Of a DNA stretch of 64,000 nt, positions 1 to 14,902 are shown in pieces. Every line of letters starts with the position of its first letter. The stretch's first letter is position 1. The stretch is from contig NZ_CP125378.1 of NCBI RefSeq assembly GCF_034008635.1, forward strand, positions 2,780,001-2,844,000. The letters are read 5' to 3'. Both the position numbers and the translations under genes were made by a program. Below the pieces are notes generated by a model, which was not told where the DNA came from, ran no database searches, and worked only from the letters and a program-made list of their open reading frames with translations. The stretch is from Pseudomonas sp. P8_229 (GTDB taxonomy: Bacteria > Pseudomonadota > Gammaproteobacteria > Pseudomonadales > Pseudomonadaceae).

Positions 1-743
1 TGCGCTTCATCTTTGCGATCAAGGCGCCAGAGCGAATCGGCAATGTTCAACATCAGTACCGTCCGTTTACCAACGGCCTCAACGCCGCGATAAAACTTCA
101 GCGCCAACTCATCTCTACCGCCCTCGGCCAGATAAAAACCGAGGTCGTTGTAGACCCGAACATTTTGCGCCGGGGGATGGCACGCCATGTAGGACTCTGG
201 ACTTAGAAAGTTCAGGCTCGATTCGATGGACTCTGCGCGGGACTGTGCGGGCTCGATACTTGAGGCATATTTCAGCAAGTCCTTTGGGGACGTCGTCTCT
301 AGGGTGGGAGTGAGCACATCGCCGTCTTCGGAAACCCATTGATTGCCCTTCCACTGACCGACACAAAAAGTCGCCCAACGATCAGCCAGCACGCAACCGG
401 TCTCCATGGAGATCACAACGCAATGCTGTTGCGACTCCAGTTTTTCTTCACCATTTTCGAGCGACAACATGCCGAAGATCACCGGGTCGAGTAACAAGGT
501 TTTCTTGTCAGGACTGAGCATATTGGAGTGCCCATCGGCGCCAATGTCGGCGCCGAATAGCGGGAAGGTTTTGCCGTTGGCGGTGAACCATGCGGTCGCG
601 GAGTTCACACCGGGCATCGTCCATTTTGTTGCTCTAAACGTCACGGTGTGCCCATCGATACCGACTATTGGCGGGTCCTCGGCGAGGACACTTGTGGCGG
701 CCAGAAGGCAGCTGATCATCAACACCCATTTAAGGCTGGCCAT
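1..743 (-). CDS. Exported hypothetical protein with TPR-like C-terminus (partial)
   Basis: An open frame starts at ATG 743 and stays open to the window edge (247 codons visible), so the C-terminus is missing. The product begins with a short hydrophobic signal-like segment ending near Ala-Glu (about residue 20). The middle is not recognised. From about residue 210 there is a helical stretch (VYNDLGFYLAEGGRDELALK) that reads like one or two tetratricopeptide repeats. Its start overlaps the stop of the upstream gene at 730 by 14 bases, so the two are probably translationally coupled. Function is unknown. It belongs to the run of small exported proteins downstream of vgrG. Confidence 0.75.
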   Translation of the reverse strand, partial: MASLKWVLMISCLLAATSVLAEDPPIVGIDGHTVTFRATKWTMPGVNSATAWFTANGKTFPLFGADIGADGHSNMLSPDKKTLLLDPVIFGMLSLENGEEKLESQQHCVVISMETGCVLADRWATFCVGQWKGNQWVSEDGDVLTPTLETTSPKDLLKYASSIEPAQSRAESIESSLNFLSPESYMACHPPAQNVRVYNDLGFYLAEGGRDELALKFYRGVEAVGKRTVLMLNIADSLWRLDRKDEA

Positions 744-1278
744 AGACGATCCTCTTCACCGTCGGGCTTTCTGACATTAACTGTCTCTTCGTAACGCCAT
801 AGGCCTTGATCAACTCTTCCCGAGATCCCTTCAAGCCAAAAGAGCGTTGGTTATTATCGAAGCTGTATTGCTCCAATCGCCCTGCTGTCGAGTAATACCC
901 ATGCCACTCCGCACAGGCACCGCAACCGCCATATCCGCCTATCGAAACAAGACTGCCCTTGGTGCCGTCCACGCAATCCATCGCCACAACAACATTGCTC
1001 AACATCTTCGTCTTCGCACCGTCGGAAGTGAGTTGTGAAACTTTGCTGATATCGCGTCGAAGCACCTTGCTACCGATGTTGATGGTCTGGTCGGAGCAGA
1101 CCGGGATGACGTGGGTTTGCGCACCATCCACCGTCACCGATCGGCAGGACGACACCAACACCACTTCAACACCGCCGCACTGCATGACATCGCGTTGGGT
1201 GTAAGCATCCGTCGGCGCGGCGAAGGCTGGGGAAGAGAAAAACCATGCCAGGCTCCCGGCGAACAAAAGCTGATTCAT
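730..1278 (-). CDS. Exported hypothetical protein
   Basis: 182 residues. The ATG at 1278 is preceded by an AAAGGA ribosome site. The N-terminus (MNQLLFAGSLAWFFSSPAFA) is a clear Sec signal peptide with an AFA cleavage site, so the product should be periplasmic. Several cysteines are present, including a GGYGGCGAC segment near residue 120, which would suit disulfide bonds in the periplasm. No family is recognised. It sits in a tight same-strand series of exported proteins between a T6SS effector module and the window edge. A role as a T6SS immunity-type protein is possible but only by context. Confidence 0.8.
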   Translation of the reverse strand: MNQLLFAGSLAWFFSSPAFAAPTDAYTQRDVMQCGGVEVVLVSSCRSVTVDGAQTHVIPVCSDQTINIGSKVLRRDISKVSQLTSDGAKTKMLSNVVVAMDCVDGTKGSLVSIGGYGGCGACAEWHGYYSTAGRLEQYSFDNNQRSFGLKGSREELIKAYGVTKRQLMSESPTVKRIVYGQP

Positions 1279-1297
1279 TGAGAAATCCTTTTCGCCG

Positions 1298-1669
1298 TTA
1301 GCCGGCCTTTTGTTTTGTCAGGCACTTTGCATAGCCGTCCGCAAACTTGGCGTCGAATGACAACGCCACCGGTTCATCCAACTCGGCCGAGGTGTTGAGC
1401 AATTCGTGGGTAGCCGGGGTGTATTTGATCCAGCCAATCGTGCCGGTGCCGTCGGTGTCGAAAAACAGCTGAGCGCGCACTACTTCACCGTCGTCCTCGT
1501 CGATCAGCAAATTGACCTTGTCTTTGCCGACATAACGAAACGGAAAATCGCTGCTCCTGACAAGCTCAGTAAGGTAGCCGTAGCAACTCCCTTCGCTGGC
1601 AGTCGCGGGCAGTGAATGAGGTAATAGCGAAAGCGCAATCAGCACAGGTCGAATGAAAAACCGGTTCAT
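1298..1669 (-). CDS. Exported hypothetical protein
   Basis: 123 residues from the ATG at 1669. That start is chosen over ATG 1684 because a GAGGAG ribosome site lies at ideal distance before it, within the end of the upstream gene. The N-terminus (MNRFFIRPVLIALSLLPHSLP) is a signal peptide and the mature part carries two cysteines. No domain is recognised. The upstream gene ends at 1674, only 4 bases away, which implies one transcript. Confidence 0.75.
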   Translation of the reverse strand: MNRFFIRPVLIALSLLPHSLPATASEGSCYGYLTELVRSSDFPFRYVGKDKVNLLIDEDDGEVVRAQLFFDTDGTGTIGWIKYTPATHELLNTSAELDEPVALSFDAKFADGYAKCLTKQKAG

Positions 1670-1673
1670 CCAC

Positions 1674-2180
1674 TCACTCCTCATCCATCGGCGACGATTC
1701 CACGTTGGTCATATTCAGCAGCCGAAACTCATTGTTCACAAACTCGTAGTAACGATCCCGGTTGCCGCTTTCCAAAGTATTCCCTTGGGCGTCTTCTTCG
1801 CCGTCGAGCGTGATGCCGGAGACGATGATCATGCGGCTGTCGGGCTGATATGCCATGCCGAACGTGCTGCCGTCGTAAGCATTCGGCAGACCGCCAACAA
1901 CTTCCCCAGTCTGAGCGTCCAGCACTTCGCCGCAAATGGCGCTGCCGCCACAGCCGAGCCTGTGCAGGATGTAATGGCCGGCGAAGTTGACCTTGCCTTT
2001 CAGGGCTTGCACCCGTGCCTGATCCATCATTGGGCTGCTGTTTTCTTGCGGCACCAGCTTATGGTTGGGGCCGGTGAAAACTGGCGTGACGGTGTAATCC
2101 TTGAAGGTTGGATCGGCAGCGAATGCCATGGACGCGGCAGCCAATATCAAGCTGCCGAGAACAATCGAAAATCCTTTCAC
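1674..2180 (-). CDS. Exported hypothetical protein
   Basis: 168 residues starting at GTG 2180, with GGAG about 8 bases upstream. It begins with a signal peptide (MKGFSIVLGSLILAAASMAFA). The mature protein contains a Gly/Cys-rich core (HYILHRLGCGGSAICGEVLD) around residues 70-90, a conserved-looking block that I recall from uncharacterised pseudomonad proteins, and it ends in an acidic tail. Function is unknown. It lies in the exported-protein array downstream of vgrG and is followed at once by another exported protein. Confidence 0.75.
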   Translation of the reverse strand: MKGFSIVLGSLILAAASMAFAADPTFKDYTVTPVFTGPNHKLVPQENSSPMMDQARVQALKGKVNFAGHYILHRLGCGGSAICGEVLDAQTGEVVGGLPNAYDGSTFGMAYQPDSRMIIVSGITLDGEEDAQGNTLESGNRDRYYEFVNNEFRLLNMTNVESSPMDEE

Positions 2181-2215
2181 GTAGTAACTCCGTAAATGCC
2201 GTGGGGACCGTCGGC

Positions 2216-2725
2216 TTACTCAGCCTGCCCTTCGTAACGCTGTGTCTGCGGGTCGAATTGCCACAGATGTGGCCGGGTCGTGGCCTTTTCACCCTTGTAG
2301 CGAATCCGCCCGCGCTTGTCCCTGATGTAGGAGTAGATCTCGATGTCCTTGAACTCACCTCCCCCCTTGGCTGGGCCGTCCAGAACTTTGACCCCGGCGA
2401 AGTAACCGCCGCCCGAATACCTCAAATAACCACGGCACTGGATCAGGAAGGCGAATGTGCTATCCATTGATGAGCCAATGCCGACGCGGGAATTGAAGAT
2501 GAAGTCTTCGATGCCATCGCCATTTAGATCGCCGCGAAAAACCACGTGGCCCGGATCGATAGAAAACTCTTTTCCATCGAGACTGGAAAGTATGTCTTCC
2601 GGATGTTCACTGCTCTGCGACCATTGCGATAAGAAATATTTTGAGTCAGCTTCCTGATTGCAAACACTTGCCGCCATAACCGCTATCGGGAACCAGCTCA
2701 CACATAACACCAGCAATCGTTTCAC
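2216..2725 (-). CDS. Exported protein, paralogue of the candidate T6SS immunity protein
   Basis: 169 residues, GTG start at 2725. The GTGA overlaps the stop of the preceding hydrolase-fusion gene, so translation is coupled. It has a signal peptide (MKRLLVLCVSWFPIAVMAAS). It aligns over its whole length with the product of 9,148-9,651: shared blocks are FLSQW, DLNGDGI-D-IF, IQCRG-LR, GG-YFA-V-VL, KDI-I-SY-RDK and a terminal YEG. DLNGDGIED is an FG-GAP/EF-hand-like acidic loop that could bind calcium. The 9,148 copy sits next to a candidate peptidoglycan-targeting effector, so this may be an orphan or spare immunity protein; that role is inferred. Confidence 0.8.
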   Translation of the reverse strand: MKRLLVLCVSWFPIAVMAASVCNQEADSKYFLSQWSQSSEHPEDILSSLDGKEFSIDPGHVVFRGDLNGDGIEDFIFNSRVGIGSSMDSTFAFLIQCRGYLRYSGGGYFAGVKVLDGPAKGGGEFKDIEIYSYIRDKRGRIRYKGEKATTRPHLWQFDPQTQRYEGQAE

Positions 2726-5172
2726 TTCGTATCCTTCGAATTGATCAACTCCAACCCACCATCCCGATACAACACCTCACACCCCACCCACGCCGGATCT
2801 ACCTGCGGCATCACCGCCGACGGCTTACGCAACTCGCGCAACAACGTCGAGCCATGCGACAAGCGCCCGCCCATTCGCGCAATCACCGCCTGCGCCGCTT
2901 GATAGTGCGCATGCCGCCCCGGATCGAGGGTGTCTTCGAGCAGGATGTCGGCGCCGAGGATGCCTTGCACCTGCCCCGGATAAATCATGAACCCGGTGGC
3001 CTGCTCCGCACCTTCGCGACCGTCCTGCCAAAAACTGCCATCGCGGGTGCGCACGTCGGGATGCGGCGCGAACCAATGCTCGCGGTCCGCCAGTGGCATG
3101 GCGTGATGAAGCCGGAAGAAGATGCGCATCAGGTTGTCGCGGTACCACTCGCGTACTTGCAGGTAGTAACCGCGCAGGCCCGGCAGGCCGGTCGAATGCG
3201 CGAGGCGGATCAGCCCTGACCATTGCGGGAATGGCTGTAGCGGCAGCTCAGTCGCCGTAGGTCGAGGCGTAGCGGGATCGGTTTCCCATGGCAGACGATG
3301 CGGACTGTTTTCAAGGTTGTCGTAAGCCGTCGGCGGGCGTCCGAGCCAATCGCCGCCGCTGCTGGCCAGCGCTGTAGCGATGCAAAGATTGCCTTGCACC
3401 ACGAACACGTAAAACCGGGTGAACCAGTCCGCGAGTTGTTGGCCATCGGCACCTTGGGCGACGAGTTCGGCCAGCTCCCGATCGAAGCGCTGCAAACCAT
3501 TTTCAAGGTTCAGCAAATGGCTGCGAGCCTTGCGTTGCATGCGCAAAAACAGCGGCAACGAACGCAACATCTTCAGTGGCTGCCACGGCAAATGCGGCGT
3601 CGCACCACCGACTTCACCGGCGTAGTTGCTGGCGCTGATGCCCCAGTCGGCCAGCCGGGCGAGAAACAGATCATTGTTGATATAGGACGCGCCGCCGAAC
3701 ACTGCGGTGAACGGCTCGTTGTCCTGCAACACCCGCGCATCCCAACGCGCCATGATCGCCGGGATACTCGCTGCCGCGCGGCGCTGGGCGTATTCCACCA
3801 GCACGCTCGGTTGCGGCGGCAGGATCTCGGCGATGTTGGCGGCGGTCAGGTGGCGGCGCCAGCCGTAGTCGCTGATCGGCCGGTATTGCAGCAGCCACAG
3901 TTGCGCACCGTCCCAGGCCCATTCGACGTCGCCGGGCACATAGTGAAAAACGCGCAGCACGTCTTGCAGAAACTGCCACAGCAACAGTTCGGTCAAACCG
4001 TGCGTGGCGGTAAATGCACCGCTGCGCCAGGCCTCGCCAACCCGCGACAGAGTGGCCCGCGAAGGGCTGACGTGACCATCGGCCAACGACTCCAGATGGC
4101 CTTCCACCCATTCCAGTTCAACTGACAAATGCCGGACAAACGCGATCCCGGAAACCACCGGCGTGATAAAGCGCTGCACCACCACTTCCTCGACGCCTTC
4201 GGCGGTCAATTCGGCGATGCGCGTCGGCACGTTGGCGCGCGGCTCGCGCAGGTAAGTGGTGCTCAGACCGGCATTCGCCGAGTCAGCCTGATCCTCGCCA
4301 TAGCTGGAGGAACGCACCGCCCAGGTCACGTCGGGTTGCGCGGCGAGAAAGGCTGACAGACGCGGATCATCGCAATCGTTGAGGTTCAGCGCCGCCGGCA
4401 CCGGTTGCCGGGCCAACTCCGCCAGACGCAAACGGCCGCCCTTGGTGTGCGCGACAAAACCACGCTCGCCGGACTCCAGCCACGCGGCAAATTCAGCCGG
4501 CGCGTCGATCCACGGGTAATGGCCCCAACCGGGTTTCAGGCTGATGGTCAGATCAGCGCGGGCGAGAATCGCCGACCACGCCGCCGCTTGCTCGATGCCG
4601 AGCACCGCGTCCTGATCGCCCCAGACCAACTCGACCGGATCGGTGATCCACTCCAGCAGCGGCAGCGCGGTGTCGGCCCGCACCAGATCCCAATGCGGCA
4701 CAAACGCCCGACAGCGAGCATAACCGGCGCCCATGCGCTGGTACTGCGCGGGCGTCCAGGTCTGATTGGAAAACTTGCGCGCGAACAGCGTCGGTTTGTT
4801 CGCCAGCAGCCAGTGAATGGTCTTGCGGATCGGCAGTGGCGACATCAGTGCCGGCAACCGCCGCTGCCACAAAAACGCACCGACCGGGGCCAACAAAACA
4901 CTGCGGGAAAAGTGTCCGGGCCGACGCTGCAACGCGTGCAGCACCAGCAACCCGTTGACCCCGACCGCCATGATCGCGCTGCCCTTCTGCGTCATCGCCA
5001 GCAAGGTCTGCGCGTAGTCCGCCAGATCCTCGCAGGGTGGCAGCGGATTGGCGCCGAAGCCCGGCAACTCCAGCGGCACCACGTCGTAGCGCTGGAAGTG
5101 CGGCAGCGCGTCATCCCACCAATCGGCGGCGCTGCCGTTGCCGGCCAGCAGGTACATCAAGGGCTTGCTCAT
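2722..5172 (-). CDS. Alpha/beta-hydrolase fold fused to PEP-utilising ATP-grasp/swivel-like domains
   Basis: 816 residues, ATG 5172. Residues 1-235 read as an alpha/beta-hydrolase. The usual Asp (D188 in WGDQD) and His (H218 in GWGHYPW) are present, but the nucleophile elbow is G-V-N-G with Asn73 where Ser is expected. Residues about 280-445 carry an ATP-binding signature like that of PEP/pyruvate-dikinase and rifampicin-phosphotransferase enzymes (AVRSSSYGEDQADSANAG). The C-terminal 80 residues contain GGRLSHGSTLLREL with His773, matching the phospho-His swivelling domain. The gene lies 9 bases after an epimerase gene and overlaps the next gene. Substrate is unknown; the hydrolase half may be non-catalytic or may act as a binding domain. 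Confidence 0.75.
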   Translation of the reverse strand: MSKPLMYLLAGNGSAADWWDDALPHFQRYDVVPLELPGFGANPLPPCEDLADYAQTLLAMTQKGSAIMAVGVNGLLVLHALQRRPGHFSRSVLLAPVGAFLWQRRLPALMSPLPIRKTIHWLLANKPTLFARKFSNQTWTPAQYQRMGAGYARCRAFVPHWDLVRADTALPLLEWITDPVELVWGDQDAVLGIEQAAAWSAILARADLTISLKPGWGHYPWIDAPAEFAAWLESGERGFVAHTKGGRLRLAELARQPVPAALNLNDCDDPRLSAFLAAQPDVTWAVRSSSYGEDQADSANAGLSTTYLREPRANVPTRIAELTAEGVEEVVVQRFITPVVSGIAFVRHLSVELEWVEGHLESLADGHVSPSRATLSRVGEAWRSGAFTATHGLTELLLWQFLQDVLRVFHYVPGDVEWAWDGAQLWLLQYRPISDYGWRRHLTAANIAEILPPQPSVLVEYAQRRAAASIPAIMARWDARVLQDNEPFTAVFGGASYINNDLFLARLADWGISASNYAGEVGGATPHLPWQPLKMLRSLPLFLRMQRKARSHLLNLENGLQRFDRELAELVAQGADGQQLADWFTRFYVFVVQGNLCIATALASSGGDWLGRPPTAYDNLENSPHRLPWETDPATPRPTATELPLQPFPQWSGLIRLAHSTGLPGLRGYYLQVREWYRDNLMRIFFRLHHAMPLADREHWFAPHPDVRTRDGSFWQDGREGAEQATGFMIYPGQVQGILGADILLEDTLDPGRHAHYQAAQAVIARMGGRLSHGSTLLRELRKPSAVMPQVDPAWVGCEVLYRDGGLELINSKDTK

Positions 5173-6715: not shown

Positions 6716-8080
6716 TCAAATGCAGTGGCTGGCTTTGATCGGCGCTGTGCCTGACGATCCCAATCGCCCCACGTTGAAGAGGCCCAACTGATTACCTTTG
6801 TCAGCCGCCATCTGATAACAGGCTAACGCTCGGGACATATCCTTCGTTCCAAGCTCCCCACCTTCAAAGGTCGAGGCCAGATAATTCATCGCGTCTGTGG
6901 AACCCATGGTGATCGCCCGAATGACCTGCTCTTTTGCCTGCTCGGGATGGAGGCAAGGGCCGTTATAGTCGGTGGAGTTTCCGACACAAAAAAACGTGGC
7001 ATAGGCCAACGCGCCACTCGGTATTTTCGAGGCTGCTTTGAACAGCGCCTCAACCTTCGAGGTTTCCAACTGAGACGCCATTTGCGAAAGGCTTAGGCTT
7101 GCCGCCGACAGGCTCGCCTGTGCGTCACCCGATTCTGCAGCACACACAAAATTTTCCAGCGACGCTTCAATCAACTCCACCGTCAGCGGGTATTGCTCAA
7201 GAAACCCCAGCCCACCTAGCGCTTCGGCACGCTGATAACAGAAGTTCTCGGCGCGGCTCATTCCCGGGTTCTCTGTTGCGACAAGATCCTTCTCACTGAT
7301 CGACCAATCCTCAATCCCCTCAAGCACCCAGCACGCCTGACGAGAGAAGTTGAAGATTTTTACATTGCTGTTGCCCGCCCGCTTATCGACCACGTTGACG
7401 TGACTGTCGTCGACCTCTTCAATCTCGACTCCAGGTGTCTTGCCGGGTGTGACGGCAGCCATCAGCGGGTAGGTGAAGGAAGCACCGCTGACGCCCGAGG
7501 TCGAAGGCTCAAAGGTACTACGGTCCTTGCCAGCAACCGGCTTCAACACAAGCGACTTGACCGTCATCGCAGTGAGACGGCGTTGTGATTCACTGCTGGC
7601 GGAAAATGCTGTCAGGAAAGCAGGGAATTCCTCCGAAGGACAAGCGCCGTTGGCCGGCGCTGTCGAAGTGCTCTTGTCAGGTGCAAGAGCAGGGACAATC
7701 TTGTCCAGATACGCCGAGCGCTCGCGGCTCATTCTGGCGATGCACGAGTTGACCGCAATCACATGCGCCGGCATCCCCGTCTCGATCTCGAATGCCTCCA
7801 ACGGACAATTCGCATCGCGCAATTTCAGCCACGCACGTTGCGACTCTTTAACCTTCGCCGCGTACTCCGCGCCCAATGCCGGATCCGCTCGATAATCAGA
7901 CTCAAGCCGCGCCATCAATTGCTTATAGCTGACGTTCAACTGCGTATCGGCAGCCTTCTTCGCCGCCTCGGAGCAGGGCACCATTTCCAGGCTTGAGGTG
8001 ACATGGCTGCAGTCATCCTGCGCGTACACTGCTGAAACAGGCAGCAGCACGGCCAGCAGGGTAAAAACAAAACGTTTCAC
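6716..8080 (-). CDS. Exported LprI-like (DUF1311) protein with Sel1-like C-terminus
   Basis: 454 residues. The start is GTG 8080, preceded by AAGGAAG six bases away; the longer frame from 8134 overlaps the upstream gene and lacks a ribosome site. There is a signal peptide (KRFVFTLLAVLLPVSAVYAQ). Residues about 22-130 match the LprI/DUF1311 pattern, with paired Cys and a W-L-K-L-R-D-A-N-C motif; this family is named for a lysozyme inhibitor. The C-terminus has Sel1-type repeats (DAMNYLASTFEGGELGTKD, ALACYQMAADKGNQLGLFNV) but stops abruptly inside a repeat, so it may be truncated. Proximity to a peptidoglycan-directed T6SS module makes a protective role attractive but unproven. Confidence 0.75.
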   Translation of the reverse strand: MKRFVFTLLAVLLPVSAVYAQDDCSHVTSSLEMVPCSEAAKKAADTQLNVSYKQLMARLESDYRADPALGAEYAAKVKESQRAWLKLRDANCPLEAFEIETGMPAHVIAVNSCIARMSRERSAYLDKIVPALAPDKSTSTAPANGACPSEEFPAFLTAFSASSESQRRLTAMTVKSLVLKPVAGKDRSTFEPSTSGVSGASFTYPLMAAVTPGKTPGVEIEEVDDSHVNVVDKRAGNSNVKIFNFSRQACWVLEGIEDWSISEKDLVATENPGMSRAENFCYQRAEALGGLGFLEQYPLTVELIEASLENFVCAAESGDAQASLSAASLSLSQMASQLETSKVEALFKAASKIPSGALAYATFFCVGNSTDYNGPCLHPEQAKEQVIRAITMGSTDAMNYLASTFEGGELGTKDMSRALACYQMAADKGNQLGLFNVGRLGSSGTAPIKASHCI

Positions 8081-8100
8081 TGTGTTCTTCCTTGAGTCAT

Positions 8101-8562
8101 TCAGGCTTTGCGTTTGGTGAATCGGGTGATGCATTGCTTGGGTATGTTCATTTCCCAGTAGGTGCTGAGCAACGCTTTGCGTTTTTTATCGACGCGCAGG
8201 TTAACGAAGCCATCGCCGCAGTCCGGCTGCAACTCTTCGAACGTGCCGGTTTTCGCTTGATAAACGAACACTCGGTAGTAATCGTAAGTACCCATACCGT
8301 CATCAAGCTGCCAGACCGCGAAATCCTTGGCGCCGTCAAAATTGAAATCATCGACCTGCGCATGGAGTTCGTTTTCAGCTTGAAAATCGATTGTCCGCGA
8401 CTCGTTATGCGTTTCGCTTTTAACCGCGACGTTCAGCGTGGAGCCTTCGAGAACCAACGTCGCCTCGACGCCTTTGGTTGGGCTGAACGTAGTGGTTTCG
8501 GCCAACACCGGCATCGTCCACAGCAGGCCGAGCAGTGATACTGCTAGAGTTTTTGATCTCAT
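8101..8562 (-). CDS. Exported XAC2610-like hypothetical protein
   Basis: 153 residues, ATG 8562, with a signal peptide (MRSKTLAVSLLGLLWTMPVLA). The segment DDFNFDGAKDFAVWQLDDG near residues 70-90, followed by YYRVFVY, resembles the calcium-loop/beta-propeller-like motif of XAC2610-type exported proteins. Spacing to the upstream gene is 9 bases and the GTG of the next gene follows within 20 bases, so it is part of one transcript. Function is unknown. Confidence 0.75.
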   Translation of the reverse strand: MRSKTLAVSLLGLLWTMPVLAETTTFSPTKGVEATLVLEGSTLNVAVKSETHNESRTIDFQAENELHAQVDDFNFDGAKDFAVWQLDDGMGTYDYYRVFVYQAKTGTFEELQPDCGDGFVNLRVDKKRKALLSTYWEMNIPKQCITRFTKRKA

Positions 8563-9147: not shown

Positions 9148-9651
9148 CTATCTCGACTCACCTTCATACAGCTTCGTTTCCGGATTAAAGCGCCAAACAT
9201 GAGGGGTAATTAATGGCTTACCATCTCTGTGCATTATTTGGTCTTGCTTATCTCTATTATATGAAAATATTTTGATATCTTTATATAGACTGCTCTCTGG
9301 GTGCGTACTCAAAACCTCTACATCTGCAAAGTAGTCACCACCAACATTTCTGAGAAATCCTCGACACTGGATAAAAAAATTGTAGGTGAAATCACCACTA
9401 GACCCCGCACTAGAATATGAAAGGAAAATATAATCCTTTATTCCATCACCATTTAGGTCTTCGTTGTATACAACTTTTCCTTCTTCGACTGAAAATTCAT
9501 CACCGGCAACTCGCGAAATCATATCGGTTGTGCGCGAGTCCTCAGTCCATTGTGATAAAAAATGCTTAGGTCCTTCTGTTGGGTAGCAGACATCCACAGG
9601 GGCCGCTTGAACAGCTGTAGCGAAAAAAGCAAGAGCAAAAAAATACTTCAC
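9148..9651 (-). CDS. Candidate periplasmic T6SS immunity protein
   Basis: 167 residues from GTG 9651, with GGAGAG five bases upstream. The start is one base after the stop of the candidate effector gene, so the two are coupled. The signal peptide (MKYFFALAFFATAVQAA) places it in the periplasm, where immunity to a cell-wall-attacking effector would be needed. The mature domain has a DLNGDGIKDYIF acidic loop near residue 70 and ends with YEGESR. It is a full-length paralogue of the product of 2,216-2,725. It shares the low GC of the effector gene. The immunity role is inferred from position, coupling and export. Confidence 0.7.
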   Translation of the reverse strand: MKYFFALAFFATAVQAAPVDVCYPTEGPKHFLSQWTEDSRTTDMISRVAGDEFSVEEGKVVYNEDLNGDGIKDYIFLSYSSAGSSGDFTYNFFIQCRGFLRNVGGDYFADVEVLSTHPESSLYKDIKIFSYNRDKQDQIMHRDGKPLITPHVWRFNPETKLYEGESR

Positions 9652-9652
9652 A

Positions 9653-11413
9653 TTAACTCTCCAGAACAAATGTATTTCGTGCGATTCTAACCGAGCCTTG
9701 AGCTTCACTTGCGCCAAAACCTATAGCACCGGTAATCGTATCGTTCAACGCCTCTAAAGCTGTATACAGCTTTTCAGTTAACGCCGATTCGTGTGCATCT
9801 CCCCAACTCGCAATCGGTAGCTGCCAATTTATTCCTGTGGAACCATTTATTGTTCCTTGAAGAACTGCATTAAGCCTGTTGTTTGGTGGTGCGCCAACAA
9901 TATGAGCAGGACGCCAAACGTGCCAACGAAGAAGTATTGCCACAGCCTTTTCCGAAGTGTAAATTTTGCCTATCGTGCTATTAATCGTTGCACCTCCAAC
10001 TTGAAATCCAATTGGATCAGTCAACATCTCTTTCAGCCGAAGCTTAGCCATGGACCACATTGTAGATCTATATCCTGGAATAGTTCTTGCCGCCATGCTA
10101 AGACGATTAAACCAGTGCCATGTTTTTAAATAATGCGCCTCGTCCTGCGAAGTGCCTAGCGCAGTAAATTCGCTATCCGCATGAGTCGCTTGGGAAACCG
10201 CATATGTATCGTTAGTAAGTTTTACCCAGCCAGCGTAGGTCATAGTATTCGTATCATACAGAGTTGGATTACCCCATTCCTTCGCAGGATACAAACCGAA
10301 GTTTTCAAACACCTTTTTGAAAATTTCAGGATTGCGATTTTTTAGATACGCCATGAACCCAACAAACTCACCTATTCCATATGCGCCTGCTCCAAAATTC
10401 CCCATAGTCCAATGACATGGACCACCAGAAATAAGAGCGTTATCCCAAGCGTTGAGTACATCAAAACGTCCAAAACACTCAGCTTCCGCAACCACCCTTA
10501 TCGTTCGATAAGTTGATAGGGTTGAGCTATTAATTTGCGTCGGATTTACAGGTGATCCAGTAATTTTTTCTACAGTCATTGCAGTCTGGGATGACCAACT
10601 ATGTGCTTTCCCAGCATTCGGACCGCCATATGTACCACTCTGATAGTAACCCACGGCATGGTATTCGGTCTGAGCGCGACCTTCAGGGAAAGTAAAATAA
10701 TCACTGAAGTCACGCATTACGACTCTCGGATTTCCTTCGGTAAAACTATCGTGAGCCCATATATTGCAACCTTTAGGGGCCAAATCAACTCTAGCCCCGG
10801 CAGTTATTTTCCAGGCTTCAAAGACAACCGGGCATCTATAGTCATTGCTAAGCCAATGCTCAATCGCAGCTCTAGTTTTTTGATTTACCACGCCACTTAT
10901 CGGACCAGTATATTTTGCTGCATTGGCTACTGACTTAAGGCTATCAACATAATATGTGGCAGGACCAACCGTAGACCCACTTACAGCGGGTGACTTTCCC
11001 GCTTTTGCAACAATACCTGCCGAGCTGTCGTAGTAAACGTCCAAATTATTTATTCGTACCGGGGAGCCTGCCTGATCCAGCAGTAGCTGACCTTTCTTCT
11101 CGTCCCTCACACATGCAATTTGTGTCATTGAAGCATAAATCTGGAATTCCCGAACGGCCCATTCGGTTCTAGAGCCAAAATCTCCAGTAGGCTTTCCGAC
11201 AACAGAAAACCCCAAACTAATCAGGTCCTCTTGAAGCTTTCTAACATGCTCCGGCACTGCTAAAGCCGCACTAGTACCTGAGGCAGCTACTGCTGTTTCG
11301 GCACTGGTGATCGTAACTGGAGGATTATTGACCCCTCCCCATCGCGGAGGTGTGTTCTGCGCTGGCTTACCATCGTGATCTTTACGACAAAGATCAAAAT
11401 CCCCATAAATCAT
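9653..11413 (-). CDS. Candidate VgrG-linked T6SS effector with two peptidoglycan-binding modules
   Basis: 586 residues, ATG 11413 with GGGAG before it; it starts 11 bases after the vgrG stop. There is no signal peptide, as expected for T6SS cargo. Residues about 55-100 (VRKLQEDLISLGFSVVGKPTGD...) and 155-190 (KTRAAIEHWL) read as two PG_binding_1 modules. Residues 190-586 are not recognised; they are rich in Trp, Tyr and Asn and contain several acidic residues that could serve a glycosidase, but no known catalytic motif is clear. No adaptor gene (DUF1795, DUF2169, DUF4123) lies beside it. Base composition is markedly AT-richer than the T6SS core, suggesting transfer. Likely a cell-wall-targeting toxin; this is inferred. 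Confidence 0.65.
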   Translation of the reverse strand: MIYGDFDLCRKDHDGKPAQNTPPRWGGVNNPPVTITSAETAVAASGTSAALAVPEHVRKLQEDLISLGFSVVGKPTGDFGSRTEWAVREFQIYASMTQIACVRDEKKGQLLLDQAGSPVRINNLDVYYDSSAGIVAKAGKSPAVSGSTVGPATYYVDSLKSVANAAKYTGPISGVVNQKTRAAIEHWLSNDYRCPVVFEAWKITAGARVDLAPKGCNIWAHDSFTEGNPRVVMRDFSDYFTFPEGRAQTEYHAVGYYQSGTYGGPNAGKAHSWSSQTAMTVEKITGSPVNPTQINSSTLSTYRTIRVVAEAECFGRFDVLNAWDNALISGGPCHWTMGNFGAGAYGIGEFVGFMAYLKNRNPEIFKKVFENFGLYPAKEWGNPTLYDTNTMTYAGWVKLTNDTYAVSQATHADSEFTALGTSQDEAHYLKTWHWFNRLSMAARTIPGYRSTMWSMAKLRLKEMLTDPIGFQVGGATINSTIGKIYTSEKAVAILLRWHVWRPAHIVGAPPNNRLNAVLQGTINGSTGINWQLPIASWGDAHESALTEKLYTALEALNDTITGAIGFGASEAQGSVRIARNTFVLES

Positions 11414-11424
11414 TGCTTACTCCC

Positions 11425-13872
11425 TTACGCAATATGTTGTTCTTCTAGCCGCTTAACATCGCTGGAAGAAAGATAATCTTTATCTGCCAACTCACATGAT
11501 CGGTGAAAGCAACGAGTGGCATACCTTGTTTTCGGCCCATTATCGCCGTCGACTTTTCCATCGTAAAAACCGAGATTCTTGAGACGAGACTGTAGACCTT
11601 TGACATCAGAAGTCTCCGATTGGGCCTTCAAATCCAATTCCCATATCCACGGTTGCGACTCCGTGCCAAAAGGATAGAAAGTAAGCTTGCCCTTTTTCGC
11701 ATCAGGCGGAACAGGCTGATCAACAAACCCATCACCAGATGTTGTGCCTTTATAGGTCACCCCGTCCACTTCCAGCGTATAGGGTTGTCCAGCAATCCCC
11801 TTTTTGTCATAGGGACGCTTCATCTGAATACGGAAGCTCTTTTTCTCGGATACTGGCGGAGGAGGAGGCACCGCATTCCCCAACGCCTGATCCATCAAAC
11901 TCCCCGCCTTATCCTTATCCGCCGCCCCCGGCAGCACCGGCGGTTTAATCCCGATGCCAGTCCCCGATCCCGCAGAACCACCCGCATTGATCTTGATCAC
12001 CGGCCCAACCACCGTAACCCCACCGCCATCGAGCTTGATAAAGCTCCCCCCCCCAAGAATGGTCAGCTCCGACCCCGCCTCAATAACGATCTTGTCCCCA
12101 GCCTTGAGGTGAATTTCTTTCCCCACGCTGGTCAGTTGCGCAGTCCCCAACTTCACATGCTGGTTCTGCCCAATCGTGAGGTGATCATCCAGCTTCGCTT
12201 CAATCTTGCGGTCGGAAATCGTGGTGCGGTGTTCCTCAGCCTTCAGCTCGGTATAGGTGTTCTTAACCACCGTGTCATGACGTTCATTACCGACCCGAAT
12301 CTTCTGGTCATGCTCAACGTTTTCATCCCAATCCCGCTGCGCATGAATGTAGATCTGCTCCGCACCTTTCTTGTCTTCAATGCGCAGTTCGTTGTAGCCG
12401 CCACCACCCGGCGAGCTAAGCGTTTTGAACACACTGCGAGTCTTGTTCGCCGGCAATGCGTACGGCACCGGGTTTTCCTTGTGGTACAGGCAGCCGGTCA
12501 CCAGCGGTTGGTCGGGGTCGCCTTCGAGGAAGGTGACGAGGACTTCCATGCCGATGCGCGGGATGCTGATCGCGCCGTAACGGTCGCCGGCCCAGGAGCT
12601 GGAGACGCGCAGCCAGCAGCTGGTTTTGTCGTCGGCGAGGCCTTCCCGGTCCCAGTGGAATTGCACTTTGATGCGGCCGTATTGGTCGCAGTGGATTTCT
12701 TCGCCTTTGGGGCCGGTGACCATGGCGGTCTGGCTGCCGAGCACGCGCGGTTTCGGGTGTTCGAGGGCTGGGCGGTAGAACACGTCCCACGGGGTGGCGA
12801 GGAAGGTGTTGCGGTAGCCTTGGTGAAAGTCGTCCTTGTTGTCGGTGGTGTCGCTGGTCACGCCTTCTTCGAGGACTTGCGGCTGTTTGCCTTCGTGGAA
12901 GATTTCGGTGAGCAGCCACAGGTCGTTCCACTCGCTGCGCGGGTGGTCGGACATTTCCATGAAGTGGCCGCTGACCAGTTTGGTCTGGTCGCCACGACCT
13001 TCGGCCTGGCGGTAGTCGGCGCGGTGGCGTTCGAGGGCGCGCTGGCTGAGGAACTTGCCGCGCGCGCGGTCGATGAAGCGGCCCGGGTAGTCGTAGTCTT
13101 CGAGATCCGGTTCGGCGTCTTTGCTATCGAGAGCGCCATCGGGCTTGTACGCCGCTTCCATTTGCAGGCGCGGTTTTTCGAAGTCGTAGTCACGGCGCGT
13201 GGTGCGGCTGGTGCGGGTTTCCAGGCGCAGCTTGAAGCCTTTGATCACCGGTTCTTCGGCGACCATGCCACTGCCCTGCACATAAGCGGTTGGCTGGCCG
13301 AGTTTCTGGAACACGGTCTGGTCGTCGCCGAACACCAGCAGGTGGCCTTTGTCGCTGTGCTGGAAGTGGTAGTGAATGCCTTCCTCTTCGCACAGGCGCT
13401 GGACGAAGTGCAGGTCGGTTTCGTCGTACTGCACGCAGTAATCGCGATCCGGGCACGGCTGACTGAGCTGGAAGCTGTAGGCGTTGCCCTTGATCCCGTG
13501 TTCGTCGAGGATCAGCGCGATGATTTTCGGCGCCGACATCTGCTGGTAGATGCGCTGGTTGGTGCGGTGATGCAGGTATTGCAGTTGCGGAACCAGCGAG
13601 ACTTTGTAGCGGGTCAGGCGCTTGCCGGCATCGCCCTGGGCGACGCGGTAGATCTGGCCGTGGATGCCCGAGCCCTGTGGATCGAACGCGAGAAACGCCT
13701 GCTTGTGCAGGAGTTTTTCCAGGTCCAGATCGGGGTTTTCGCTGACCAGTTCGAGGTCGAAGCGAAACGGCTGGCTGATGCCTTCGGTGCCGGTGAACGA
13801 CAGCACTTGCAGGTCGCCCACGTAGTCTTCGACCTTGAGGCTGAAGTGGGTTTCGTTAGCTGGGTTGAACAT
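11425..13872 (-). CDS. vgrG: T6SS spike protein VgrG with C-terminal extension
   Basis: 815 residues from ATG 13872 (GGAG before it); upstream codons in frame lack a ribosome site. The order is a gp27-like base (residues 1-380), the gp5/OB region (VLVTFLEGDPDQPLVTGCLYH around 475), a long beta-helix with repeats (EIHLKAGDKIVIEAGSEL), then a Gly/Pro linker. A tail of about 150 residues follows, with a transthyretin-like segment (YTLEVDGVTYKG) and a PG_binding_1-like module (LQSRLKNLGFYDGKVDGDNG). The tail is encoded by AT-richer DNA than the core and directly precedes the effector gene, fitting a role as the cargo-docking part. VgrG forms the puncturing trimer at the tip of the Hcp tube. Confidence 0.93.
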   Translation of the reverse strand: MFNPANETHFSLKVEDYVGDLQVLSFTGTEGISQPFRFDLELVSENPDLDLEKLLHKQAFLAFDPQGSGIHGQIYRVAQGDAGKRLTRYKVSLVPQLQYLHHRTNQRIYQQMSAPKIIALILDEHGIKGNAYSFQLSQPCPDRDYCVQYDETDLHFVQRLCEEEGIHYHFQHSDKGHLLVFGDDQTVFQKLGQPTAYVQGSGMVAEEPVIKGFKLRLETRTSRTTRRDYDFEKPRLQMEAAYKPDGALDSKDAEPDLEDYDYPGRFIDRARGKFLSQRALERHRADYRQAEGRGDQTKLVSGHFMEMSDHPRSEWNDLWLLTEIFHEGKQPQVLEEGVTSDTTDNKDDFHQGYRNTFLATPWDVFYRPALEHPKPRVLGSQTAMVTGPKGEEIHCDQYGRIKVQFHWDREGLADDKTSCWLRVSSSWAGDRYGAISIPRIGMEVLVTFLEGDPDQPLVTGCLYHKENPVPYALPANKTRSVFKTLSSPGGGGYNELRIEDKKGAEQIYIHAQRDWDENVEHDQKIRVGNERHDTVVKNTYTELKAEEHRTTISDRKIEAKLDDHLTIGQNQHVKLGTAQLTSVGKEIHLKAGDKIVIEAGSELTILGGGSFIKLDGGGVTVVGPVIKINAGGSAGSGTGIGIKPPVLPGAADKDKAGSLMDQALGNAVPPPPPVSEKKSFRIQMKRPYDKKGIAGQPYTLEVDGVTYKGTTSGDGFVDQPVPPDAKKGKLTFYPFGTESQPWIWELDLKAQSETSDVKGLQSRLKNLGFYDGKVDGDNGPKTRYATRCFHRSCELADKDYLSSSDVKRLEEQHIA

Positions 13873-13900
13873 AAAGCGCTCCCTGTTCGAATGTCGTCCG

Positions 13901-14902
13901 TTACGCCCGAAGTCGCAACCGTTGCAGCCAGGACGAAGTGGCGCCCAAGGCGTCACGCAATTGGTCGGCAGTGATGGTGCGCTCTGCCGCATTGAAGCTC
14001 AGCGCAGTTTTCAGCGCTGGCCAGCCGTGTTTTGGCAGGTTCGCCGGGGCTTGCAGCTCGCGCTCCAGGTGCTCATCGCGGGCCTGGGTCGAGGGCAAGC
14101 GGCGGAACGGGTGTTTGCCGCTCGCCAGTTCATAAATCACGCAGGCCACGCCGTACACGTCCGCGCTGGCCGACAACGGTTGGCCCTCAAGCAGTTCGGG
14201 GGCAGCGTAGCCCGGGGTCCAGGCGTTGAAACGCTCGCGGCTCAGGTGCGGCAGGCCGGGCAACACGCCTTCGTCTGCCTGGCCGAGACCGAAGTCGAAC
14301 AGGCGCAGGCCGTCCTCGCTGAGCATGACGTTGCTTGGCTTCATGTCACCGTGCAGCACGCCGCGACGGTGGGCGTAGGCCAGCGTATCGAGCAGCGGCA
14401 GCGCGATGTCGCGCGTTTCTTTCCACGGCAGGCCGAGGGGCCGCTCGCAGAGCAATTTGTCCAGGGTCAGGCCACGCATGTATTCCATGGTGATGAAAGC
14501 CCGCTGGCAGTCGGTATCGACTTCAAAGGTGTGTGCACGCACGACGTTGTCGTGGCGCAGGCGTCGGATCAGGGCGAACTCGCTGTAGAGCAAGGCACTG
14601 GCGTCCGGCGATTCGGCAAATTCTTCGCTGAGGATTTTCAGCGCAATGTAAGGATCGGGATCACCGAACTGCTCGTGCAGCAGGTCCCGCGCCCGGTAGA
14701 CGGCACCCATGCCGCCCGCCCCGAGCAGACGCTCGAGGTGGTAGCGGCCGGCGAGTACGTCCGGCAGTGCACCGATGCTGGCCTTGGTTGGCGCCAGCAA
14801 CGGCTCTGCCTTGTTTGCCTTGGCGAAGGCGAAGTAGGTCAGGTTGTTGGCCTGCTCTTCGCTCATCAGCAAGTCATCGACTGACGATTCGATTTCAGTC
14901 AT
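13901..14902 (-). CDS. stk1: T6SS serine/threonine protein kinase Stk1 (PpkA-like)
   Basis: 333 residues from ATG 14902, which overlaps the TGA of the phosphatase gene (ATGA). Kinase motifs are in order: glycine loop LLGAGGMGAVYRARD, IALKIL, the catalytic loop HGDMKPSNV (HGD in place of HRD), DFGLG, and a PGYAAPELL activation/APE region. No transmembrane segment follows the kinase domain. In HSI-II-type clusters this gene closes the structural operon with its phosphatase partner and controls assembly, probably through phosphorylation of the FHA protein; the partner here is the product of 21,900-23,093. Confidence 0.9.
   Translation of the reverse strand: MTEIESSVDDLLMSEEQANNLTYFAFAKANKAEPLLAPTKASIGALPDVLAGRYHLERLLGAGGMGAVYRARDLLHEQFGDPDPYIALKILSEEFAESPDASALLYSEFALIRRLRHDNVVRAHTFEVDTDCQRAFITMEYMRGLTLDKLLCERPLGLPWKETRDIALPLLDTLAYAHRRGVLHGDMKPSNVMLSEDGLRLFDFGLGQADEGVLPGLPHLSRERFNAWTPGYAAPELLEGQPLSASADVYGVACVIYELASGKHPFRRLPSTQARDEHLERELQAPANLPKHGWPALKTALSFNAAERTITADQLRDALGATSSWLQRLRLRA

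What the first reader, a model, noticed from the sequence alone, without database searches (positions are those of the whole stretch)
9148..11413. Candidate new T6SS effector-immunity pair next to vgrG
The gene directly after vgrG encodes 586 residues with two peptidoglycan-binding modules, no signal peptide and about 400 residues I cannot assign. The next gene, one base away, encodes an exported protein with an acidic DLNGDG loop. Both are AT-rich against a GC-rich T6SS core. The arrangement fits a cell-wall-attacking toxin with periplasmic immunity, possibly of an undescribed catalytic type.
Basis: partly seen in the sequence, partly recalled or inferred. Interest (0 to 1): 0.78.

Follow-up and report, generated by a model that had tools for sequence, protein, structure and literature searches.

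The report
VgrG-linked cell-wall toxin and antidote
Next to a bacterial harpoon gene sits a gene pair that very probably makes an injected toxin cutting rivals' cell walls and the exported antidote that protects its owner; the toxin's cutting part belongs to a protein family that the databases searched here do not name.

Summary
The pair is real: a 586-aa gene (9653-11413, -) behind vgrG and, one base on, an exported 167-aa protein (start GTG 9651), both AT-rich. In 8 of 8 loci held here with a full-length effector beside vgrG (window, five other Pseudomonas, two from another family of the class) the order is VgrG with one particular C-terminal extension, effector, exported protein with a DxNxD loop. 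At the same site another Pseudomonas has a VgrG with a 92.6%-identical body, no extension and a different effector: an exchangeable cassette. The core (about residues 300-505) has no significant Pfam, NCBIfam, PHROGs or PDB-sequence match. Relatives occur in Vibrio phage proteins, lysin-like fusions and WHxxxH-bearing vgrG-linked effectors. E312 (21 of 21), D324 and G331 (22 of 22) and S/T329 (22 of 22) are conserved in a set partly found through that motif. Best reading: a lysozyme-like glycan hydrolase delivered by T6SS, with a periplasmic inhibitor. Fold, activity and inhibition are unshown; the toxin's AlphaFold model failed and comparison with known glycosidase families was not significant. 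The window also holds an antidote-gene array with a 47%-identical second antidote copy.

The parts
11425..13992 (-). VgrG spike protein (855 aa as listed; real start probably about residue 41, inferred)
   Evidence: TIGR03361 E 8.6e-205; Phage_GPD, Gp5_trimer_C, Phage_base_V
11425..11799 (-). C-terminal VgrG extension, residues 732-855, with PG_binding_1 at 795-825; AT-rich; proposed effector-docking part
   Evidence: PG_binding_1 E 1.6e-5; GC 0.467 for aa 720-855 against 0.605 for aa 1-690; 45.2% identical to the L018 extension while the bodies are 30.7% identical; absent from L020 VgrG whose body is 92.6% identical
9653..11413 (-). effector, 586 aa
   Evidence: homologs
11141..11248 (-). PG_binding_1 module of the effector (residues 56-91)
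   Evidence: Pfam E 1.9e-10
10853..10915 (-). partial second peptidoglycan-binding-like stretch (residues 167-187)
   Evidence: NCBIfam HxsA partial match E 5.5e-4, 20 bits against cut-off 121.65; weak
9899..10516 (-). core (about residues 300-505) of a family without library match; candidate catalytic residues E312 (10478-10480), D324 (10442-10444), S329 (10427-10429)
   Evidence: alignments A1, A5, A8; column counts over 22 sequences
9148..9651 (-). antidote (immunity) candidate, 167 aa, signal-peptide-like start (by eye), DLNGDG loop
   Evidence: model all-beta, pLDDT 65.6
2216..2725 (-). second copy (paralog) of the antidote, 169 aa, not beside an effector
   Evidence: phmmer E 1.5e-46 in a set of 7 ORFs, 75 of 158 aligned residues identical; E 2.3e-45 in a set of 109 ORFs
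8101..8562 (-). exported-looking protein of the XAC2610 family
   Evidence: NF047539 E 1.2e-14, 54.5 bits against cut-off 35
6716..8134 (-). exported-looking protein with LprI lysozyme-inhibitor domain (a Sel1 repeat match is below its cut-off)
   Evidence: PF07007 E 3.4e-18; Sel1 24.3 against 30.7 bits
8572..8997 (-). exported-looking 141-aa protein without significant family match
1..744 (-). homolog of the protein that follows the L020 effector (runs off the window; whole ORF is window -101 to 744)
   Evidence: phmmer E 1.3e-45 in a set of 109 ORFs

Best explanation
A VgrG-carried T6SS cargo effector with its periplasmic antidote. The effector has no signal peptide and is taken up by the VgrG whose C-terminal extension, itself ending in a peptidoglycan-binding-type module, travels with it (inferred). 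After injection it acts in the rival's periplasm. The PG_binding_1 module holds it on peptidoglycan or docks it to VgrG, and the C-terminal core cuts the glycan strand like a lysozyme, with E312 as proton donor and D324 and S/T329 as partners (inferred). The one-base-adjacent exported protein, probably all-beta with a DxNxD loop, sits in the producer's periplasm and blocks the enzyme (inferred). Shown here: gene order, co-conservation, cassette exchange, domain fusions, residue conservation. Not shown: secretion, toxicity, hydrolysis, bond cut, inhibition.
For: Order vgrG-effector-exported DxNxD protein in 8 of 8 loci held with a full-length effector beside vgrG: window, L001-L004, L019, L018, L021. 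VgrG extension in these 8 (L021 by eye); not in the 2 vgrG loci with the other architecture, L020 and L061 (no PG_binding match). L018 VgrG body 30.7% but extension 45.2% identical to the window. Core joined elsewhere to PG_binding_1 (L009, L021, L062, L063), SH3_3 (L029), an extensin-like peptidase domain (L058, E 3.5e-8) and a CHAP-like domain (L063, E 1.5e-4, 22.7 against 26 bits). Core at the C-terminus of vgrG-linked proteins with a WHxxxH motif, L020 and L061, where the WHIX paper reports peptidoglycan-targeting domains. E312 21/21, D324 22/22, S/T329 22/22, G331 22/22. Nearby XAC2610-family and LprI genes belong to families known as inhibitors of lysozyme-type enzymes.
Against: No library match: over 17 core members no Pfam family was matched by more than one (6 families, one member each, best E 0.083), and 0 PDB sequences at E<=10. 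hhalign with small GH46, GH24 and GH19 sets gave probabilities of 0.1-0.2%; with trimmed sets the GH46 score of 17.1 (0.7%) was exceeded by at least 5 of 100 column shuffles. Effector model unusable (pLDDT 32.4). Antidote below the XAC2610 cut-off (14.0 against 35 bits), no significant Foldseek match. The residue counts are partly circular: L058-L060 were found through the motif. The core also occurs in Gram-positive hosts, in Vibrio phages and at a Rhizobium plasmid site without an annotated vgrG. A motif scan of L008, L030, L009, L010 and L061 showed no DxNxD neighbour (its length filter also missed the L021 antidote).
Confidence: 0.66

Rival explanations
1. The core attacks peptidoglycan but not the glycan strand: it is an amidase or peptidase, or a chemistry not yet described, and E312/D324 serve another role.
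For: No profile match to any glycosidase family and failed comparison with GH46, GH24 and GH19 sets; W434 and H498 are also strongly conserved (17 of 18 and 20 of 22).
Against: The core is joined to separate peptidase-type domains in L058 and, below cut-off, in L063, the usual pattern for a glycan-cutting partner. No Cys is among the columns conserved in at least 80%. Neighbouring genes include lysozyme-inhibitor-type families.
Confidence: 0.17
2. The effector is real but the cognate antidote is not, or not only, the 167-aa protein; the XAC2610-family or LprI gene further down protects the cell.
For: Both inhibitor-type genes lie within 2.5 kb downstream; the LprI gene is kept in L001, L002 and L019.
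Against: The adjacent exported protein is the constant one (8 of 8, counting the two distant homologs). The LprI gene also follows a different effector in L020; L003, L004 and L018 gave no hit to either gene in the stretches held, which fits leftover array members.
Confidence: 0.12
3. Not a toxin: an accessory that only binds peptidoglycan, or an enzyme that helps the producer build its own T6SS through its wall.
For: PG_binding_1 modules on both VgrG and this protein; PG_binding_1 has been proposed as an effector-discrimination domain in vgrG loci.
Against: A dedicated exported partner, co-inherited and duplicated; replacement by a different effector with its own partner at the same site; rarity (strong match in 2 of 298 Pseudomonas genomes, the window's own included). 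All fit a toxin-antidote module better than a structural part.
Confidence: 0.05

Closest known systems
WHIX-class T6SS effectors with C-terminal peptidoglycan-targeting domains (PMC12135965; passages and section 6 seen)
   Same: The core is distantly homologous to the C-terminal part of L020 (E 9.1e-4, 34%) and, through it, of L061 (36.4%, E 9e-53), two vgrG-linked proteins with the WHxxxH motif; exported neighbours; LprI genes nearby.
   Different: The window effector has no WHxxxH motif (by eye); its front is a PG_binding_1 region and its VgrG carries a PG_binding_1-tailed extension.
TseP, dual amidase-lysozyme effector (PMC11893102; abstract, sections 8, 9, 11 and passages seen)
   Same: VgrG-linked, peptidoglycan-targeting, C-terminal enzyme of lower GC than the upstream vgrG.
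   Different: No PDB sequence match of the effector or core profiles to it (whether 8XCL is in the copy was not verified); its active residues are given as E654 (once E655) and E663, while here the conserved E and D are 10 to 12 apart; no amidase match in the window effector.
XAC2609/XAC2610, X-T4SS lysozyme-like effector with PG-binding domain and its immunity protein (PMC10933484; passages seen)
   Same: Peptidoglycan hydrolase plus PG-binding domain with an antidote; weak sub-threshold XAC2610 match over the DLNGDG region; a clear XAC2610-family gene lies 0.6 kb downstream.
   Different: Other secretion system; GH19 catalytic domain there, none found here; the adjacent antidote fails the XAC2610 cut-off.
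PG_binding_1 as a proposed effector-discrimination domain of vgrG loci (PMC10673891; passages seen)
   Same: PG_binding_1 fused to the VgrG C-terminus and to a toxin, both forms listed there.
   Different: The passages name Chromatiaceae, Sinobacteraceae and Vibrionaceae; here it is in Pseudomonas, on carrier and cargo at once, and its absence goes with a different effector.

Membership tests
T6SS VgrG-linked cargo effector | gene directly behind vgrG beside a T6SS core | tested here: met
   behind vgrG in 8 of 8 loci; T6SS core checked in the window only
T6SS VgrG-linked cargo effector | T6SS- and VgrG-dependent secretion | not testable with these tools
   needs a secretion assay
Effector-immunity pair acting on peptidoglycan | adjacent co-inherited exported protein | tested here: met
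   signal peptides judged by eye, no predictor was available
Effector-immunity pair acting on peptidoglycan | toxicity neutralised by the partner; hydrolysis of peptidoglycan | not testable with these tools
   none
Lysozyme superfamily glycoside hydrolase | profile match to a known family | tested here: not met
   hhalign against small GH46, GH24 and GH19 sets (the trimmed GH24 test in 109 is void, all five rows were dropped)
Lysozyme superfamily glycoside hydrolase | conserved catalytic Glu with Asp and Ser/Thr partner (pattern recalled) | tested here: met
   E312 21/21, D324 22/22, S/T329 22/22; the set was partly gathered through this motif
Lysozyme superfamily glycoside hydrolase | lysozyme-like fold | tested here: inconclusive
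   model pLDDT 32.4
WHIX effector | WHxxxH motif | tested here: not met
   absent from the effector (by eye); present in L020 and L061
TseP family | N-terminal amidase and sequence-related C-terminal lysozyme domain | tested here: not met
   no amidase match; no PDB sequence hit, presence of 8XCL in the copy not verified
XAC2610 family (antidote) | NF047539 score over cut-off | tested here: not met
   14.0 against 35 bits, E 0.055
XAC2610/PliI/Tsi1-type beta-propeller inhibitor (antidote) | beta-propeller fold | tested here: inconclusive
   all-beta model pLDDT 65.6, pTM 0.62; 0 Foldseek matches at E<=0.001, 288 at E<=10

The most novel reading that the evidence does not exclude
The core defines an undescribed peptidoglycan-cutting enzyme family shared by T6SS effectors, phage proteins, CHAP/peptidase-fused lysin-like proteins and large actinobacterial proteins. 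In T6SS it comes in two exchangeable delivery formats (WHIX front, or PG_binding_1 front plus PG_binding_1-tailed VgrG), the second being a paired docking code in which the same module type on carrier and cargo selects the load.
Probability: 0.4. Interest if true: 0.66.

Novelty: new variant of a known kind. Interest (0 to 1): 0.5.

Why it matters
It would add an enzyme family without a library entry to the T6SS cell-wall arsenal and tie it to phage and lysin-like proteins. It also offers a natural experiment on effector loading: at one chromosomal site, nearly identical VgrG bodies with and without a C-terminal extension carry two different effectors that share only a distantly related core. 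The antidote array, with a second copy of the antidote, looks like a record of earlier exchanges.

Tried and rejected
AlphaFold on the effector with 5 sequences: pLDDT 32.4, so no fold search was made with it. Foldseek with the antidote model: nothing at E<=0.001; weak rows include integrins and other propellers, none significant. The 'pdb_via' library was not available. Scans of viral contigs with the effector (0 stretches), alignment A1 (13 stretches), the phage protein (2 stretches) and a DNA motif (0 stretches) gave no relative. The antidote found no match in plasmids at E<=0.01.

GH46 chitosanase idea: motif spacing suggests it to the eye, but hhalign gave 0.2% and, trimmed, 0.7% with score 17.1, against a reversed-control score of 12.7; at least 5 of 100 shuffles scored higher (17.2 to 18.7 and one outlier of 130.3 that I do not understand); in global mode the score was 2.9 against a shuffle mean of 2.7. 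Kinship with GH46 is not claimed. The trimmed GH24 comparison is void (all five rows dropped by my pattern). L009 was dropped from the trimmed core set and L039 from the trimmed GH46 set. hmmsearch of GH46, GH24 and GH19 rows with the wider core profile gave at best 0.7 bits. TseP C-domain as a relative: not supported by sequence.

Weak genome hits that match only the front part of the profile (G546, G615, G691, G701, G740, G766, G771, G818) were not counted as relatives. G764 (L022) and G835 (L029) match the core only. L034 has a stop inside its match; only its open piece was used (A7, A8) and it is not in the 22-sequence count. L009 lacks the E312 column there because my range began too late; the residue is in its frame. 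In one search the L001 antidote and the L018 antidote's own frame are missing from the target set through my overlap pruning; L001 is found. In one search my filter missed the L021 antidote; it was read.

Full report
What is there. The gene at 9653-11413 (-) encodes 586 residues and begins 11 bases after the end of vgrG (11425-13992). One base after its stop, GTG 9651 opens a 167-residue frame with a hydrophobic, signal-peptide-like start. Signal peptides were judged by eye throughout. VgrG scores E 8.6e-205 with TIGR03361. TssM, TssL, TssK, TssJ, TagH, TssH, TssG and TssF lie between 15627 and 30544. GC is 0.457 for the effector, 0.405 for the antidote and 0.467 for VgrG residues 720-855, against 0.605 for VgrG residues 1-690 and 0.600 for the window. 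The AT-rich stretch thus begins inside vgrG, in its C-terminal extension.

Known families. Only PG_binding_1 at residues 56-91 passes a curated cut-off (E 1.9e-10). A second peptidoglycan-binding-like stretch at 167-187 is weak. Residues 190-586 have no significant match in Pfam, NCBIfam, PHROGs or PDB sequences. The antidote has only sub-threshold matches.

Relatives of the effector. One genome-contig scan gave four Pseudomonas loci at 61-80% identity (L001-L004). In 298 genomes of the genus, 3 matched: the window's own, G111 (66%) and, weakly, G100 (E 9.1e-4). In 398 genomes of the phylum, 4 matched: the own genome, G386 (full-length) and two front-part matches. In 149 genomes of the family of G386, 9 matched: two full-length (G386, G730), one core-only (G764), six front-part only. 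In 240 genomes of the class of G546, 2 matched: G835 (core) and G546 (front part). With the core profile A8, 4 of 190 genomes of that class matched. Relatives at about 28-33% identity lie on Rhizobium, Azospirillum, Streptomyces and Nonomuraea replicons (7 plasmid records), and at 26-28% over residues 295-505 in two Vibrio phages (best E 5e-8). The effector is rare in Pseudomonas; its core is broad.

Gene order. In the window, L001-L004 and L019 the order vgrG - effector - antidote homolog holds (6 of 6). In L018 the effector follows a VgrG of another type and the next gene is an exported-looking protein with PDLNGDGLPD; its only match at E<=0.01 among 109 ORFs is the window antidote (E 0.008, weak; its own frame had been pruned from the set). 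In L021 the VgrG piece upstream carries the same extension, and the next frame starts MKHAPLFAALVATMSANGCASS and has PDLNADGKAD. That makes 8 of 8 loci held with a full-length effector beside vgrG. The distant plasmid loci L008/L030 and L009 have no annotated vgrG nearby; L010 and L011 are unannotated and were not examined for it.

A cassette. VgrG residues 732-855 form an extension with its own PG_binding_1 module (795-825). L018 VgrG is 30.7% identical to the window in the body (186 of 606 aligned) but 45.2% in the extension (56 of 124). L020, at the same chromosomal site (same TIGR01777 gene and next gene downstream), has a VgrG body 92.6% identical (604 of 652) but no extension, and a different, 944-aa effector. 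The simplest reading is that extension, effector and antidote move together and that the extension helps to select the cargo. A survey of vgrG loci lists PG_binding_1 among six domains found fused to VgrG C-termini and to toxins and proposes a role in effector discrimination (PMC10673891, passages). The window has it on both partners.

The core. Counts come from 22 sequences: the 17 of A8 without L034 (16), plus L058-L060 and L061-L063. Conserved are E312 (21 of 21), G315 (20 of 21), D324 (22 of 22), S or T at 329 (15 and 7), G331 (22 of 22), Q or H at 334 (12 and 10), E349 (18 of 21) and H498 (20 of 22). E312 and D324 are 12 apart in the window and 10 apart in the shorter branch. L058-L060 match the core profile over the motif only (19.4, 17.5 and 16.2 bits in a set of three; E 1.8e-4 to 5.5e-4 per genome), and L063 was found through L060; their membership is less sure and their motif counts are partly circular. 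Domain company: PG_binding_1 (window, L009, L021, L062, L063), SH3_3 (L029, E 8.2e-9), extensin-like peptidase domain (L058, E 3.5e-8), CHAP-like (L063, E 1.5e-4, 22.7 against 26 bits). In L020 and L061 the core is the C-terminal part of proteins directly behind vgrG that carry WHxxxH near the N-terminus (positions 48 and 69) and are followed by related downstream proteins (E 1.5e-7). The paper that defined WHIX reports C-terminal peptidoglycan-targeting domains and mostly exported neighbours, some of the LprI type (PMC12135965, section 6). My assignment of L020 and L061 to WHIX rests on motif and architecture, not on a profile. The L061 record names its protein a lytic transglycosylase domain-containing protein, though Pfam shows no such domain at E<=0.1.

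Mechanism. E312, D324 and then S/T-x-G resemble the Glu...Asp...Thr arrangement of phage-type lysozymes and chitosanases (recalled). Formal support failed: hhalign with small GH46, GH24 and GH19 sets was not significant, no Pfam family was matched by more than one of 17 members, and the effector model is unusable. I hold lysozyme-like glycan cleavage as the most likely reading, about two in three, not as shown.

The antidote. Six sequences share 51 invariant columns, including C22, C96 and D65, N67, G68, D69 of the loop. The model is all-beta with moderate confidence (pLDDT 65.6, pTM 0.62) and has no significant fold match. XAC2610, PliI-Ah and Tsi1 are inhibitors of beta-propeller topology; [quoted passage not shown] The window antidote is compatible with that type but fails the XAC2610 cut-off.

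An antidote array. Downstream lie an exported-looking 141-aa protein, a clear XAC2610-family protein (E 1.2e-14) and an LprI-domain protein (E 3.4e-18). Behind a gene with PPDK_N and PEP-utilizer matches (2722-5172) follow a second copy of the antidote at 2216-2725 (75 of 158 residues identical), three family-less exported-looking proteins and, at -101 to 744, a homolog of the protein behind the L020 effector (E 1.3e-45). Immunity gene arrays left by successive displacement of effector genes are described for Vibrio cholerae (PMC5361080, title and start of abstract in the listing). In L004 EF-hand and GH19 effector-like pieces also lie in the stretch.

Known or new. Nine full-text searches of an open-access library that lacks most subscription papers showed no description of this effector in listings or in the passages I opened (PMC11148199 and PMC13340143 among them); I did not read those two papers through. 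It is a T6SS cell-wall effector-immunity pair, a known kind, with an enzyme family that the libraries searched do not name and a delivery format with matching modules on carrier and cargo. Hence 'new variant of a known kind'.

Noticed in passing
window 1-2725 (and G000 upstream to window -101): Array of small exported-looking proteins with no recognised effector beside it: antidote paralog (2216-2725), three family-less proteins (1674-2180, 1298-1684, 730-1278) and a homolog of the protein behind the L020 effector.
   Followed up: partly
window 2722-5172: 816-aa protein joining an alpha/beta-hydrolase-like front (25.3 bits, just under the 25.8 cut-off) to PPDK_N and PEP-utilizer mobile domains; kept at the same site in L019 and L020. 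An odd fusion, not obviously part of the T6SS.
   Followed up: partly
L009 1289-9626 (Streptomyces longwoodensis plasmid): 1514-aa protein ending in PG_binding_1 plus the core, next to a DUF6603 gene; a Gram-positive host, so the core must work in another setting there.
   Followed up: no
L012, L013, L062 (Vibrio phages): About 420-450-aa phage proteins with the same core, among mostly uncharacterised genes; one carries a PG_binding_1 match, one is labelled LysM. Candidate phage lysins or virion enzymes without a family name.
   Followed up: partly
L004 10636-11792: Separate frames with EF-hand and GH19 matches downstream of the effector pair: remains or parts of another effector at the same locus.
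   Followed up: no
L058 448-2259: 604-aa protein (class of G835) with an extensin-like peptidase domain and a core-like motif: a two-enzyme lysin-like protein.
   Followed up: no
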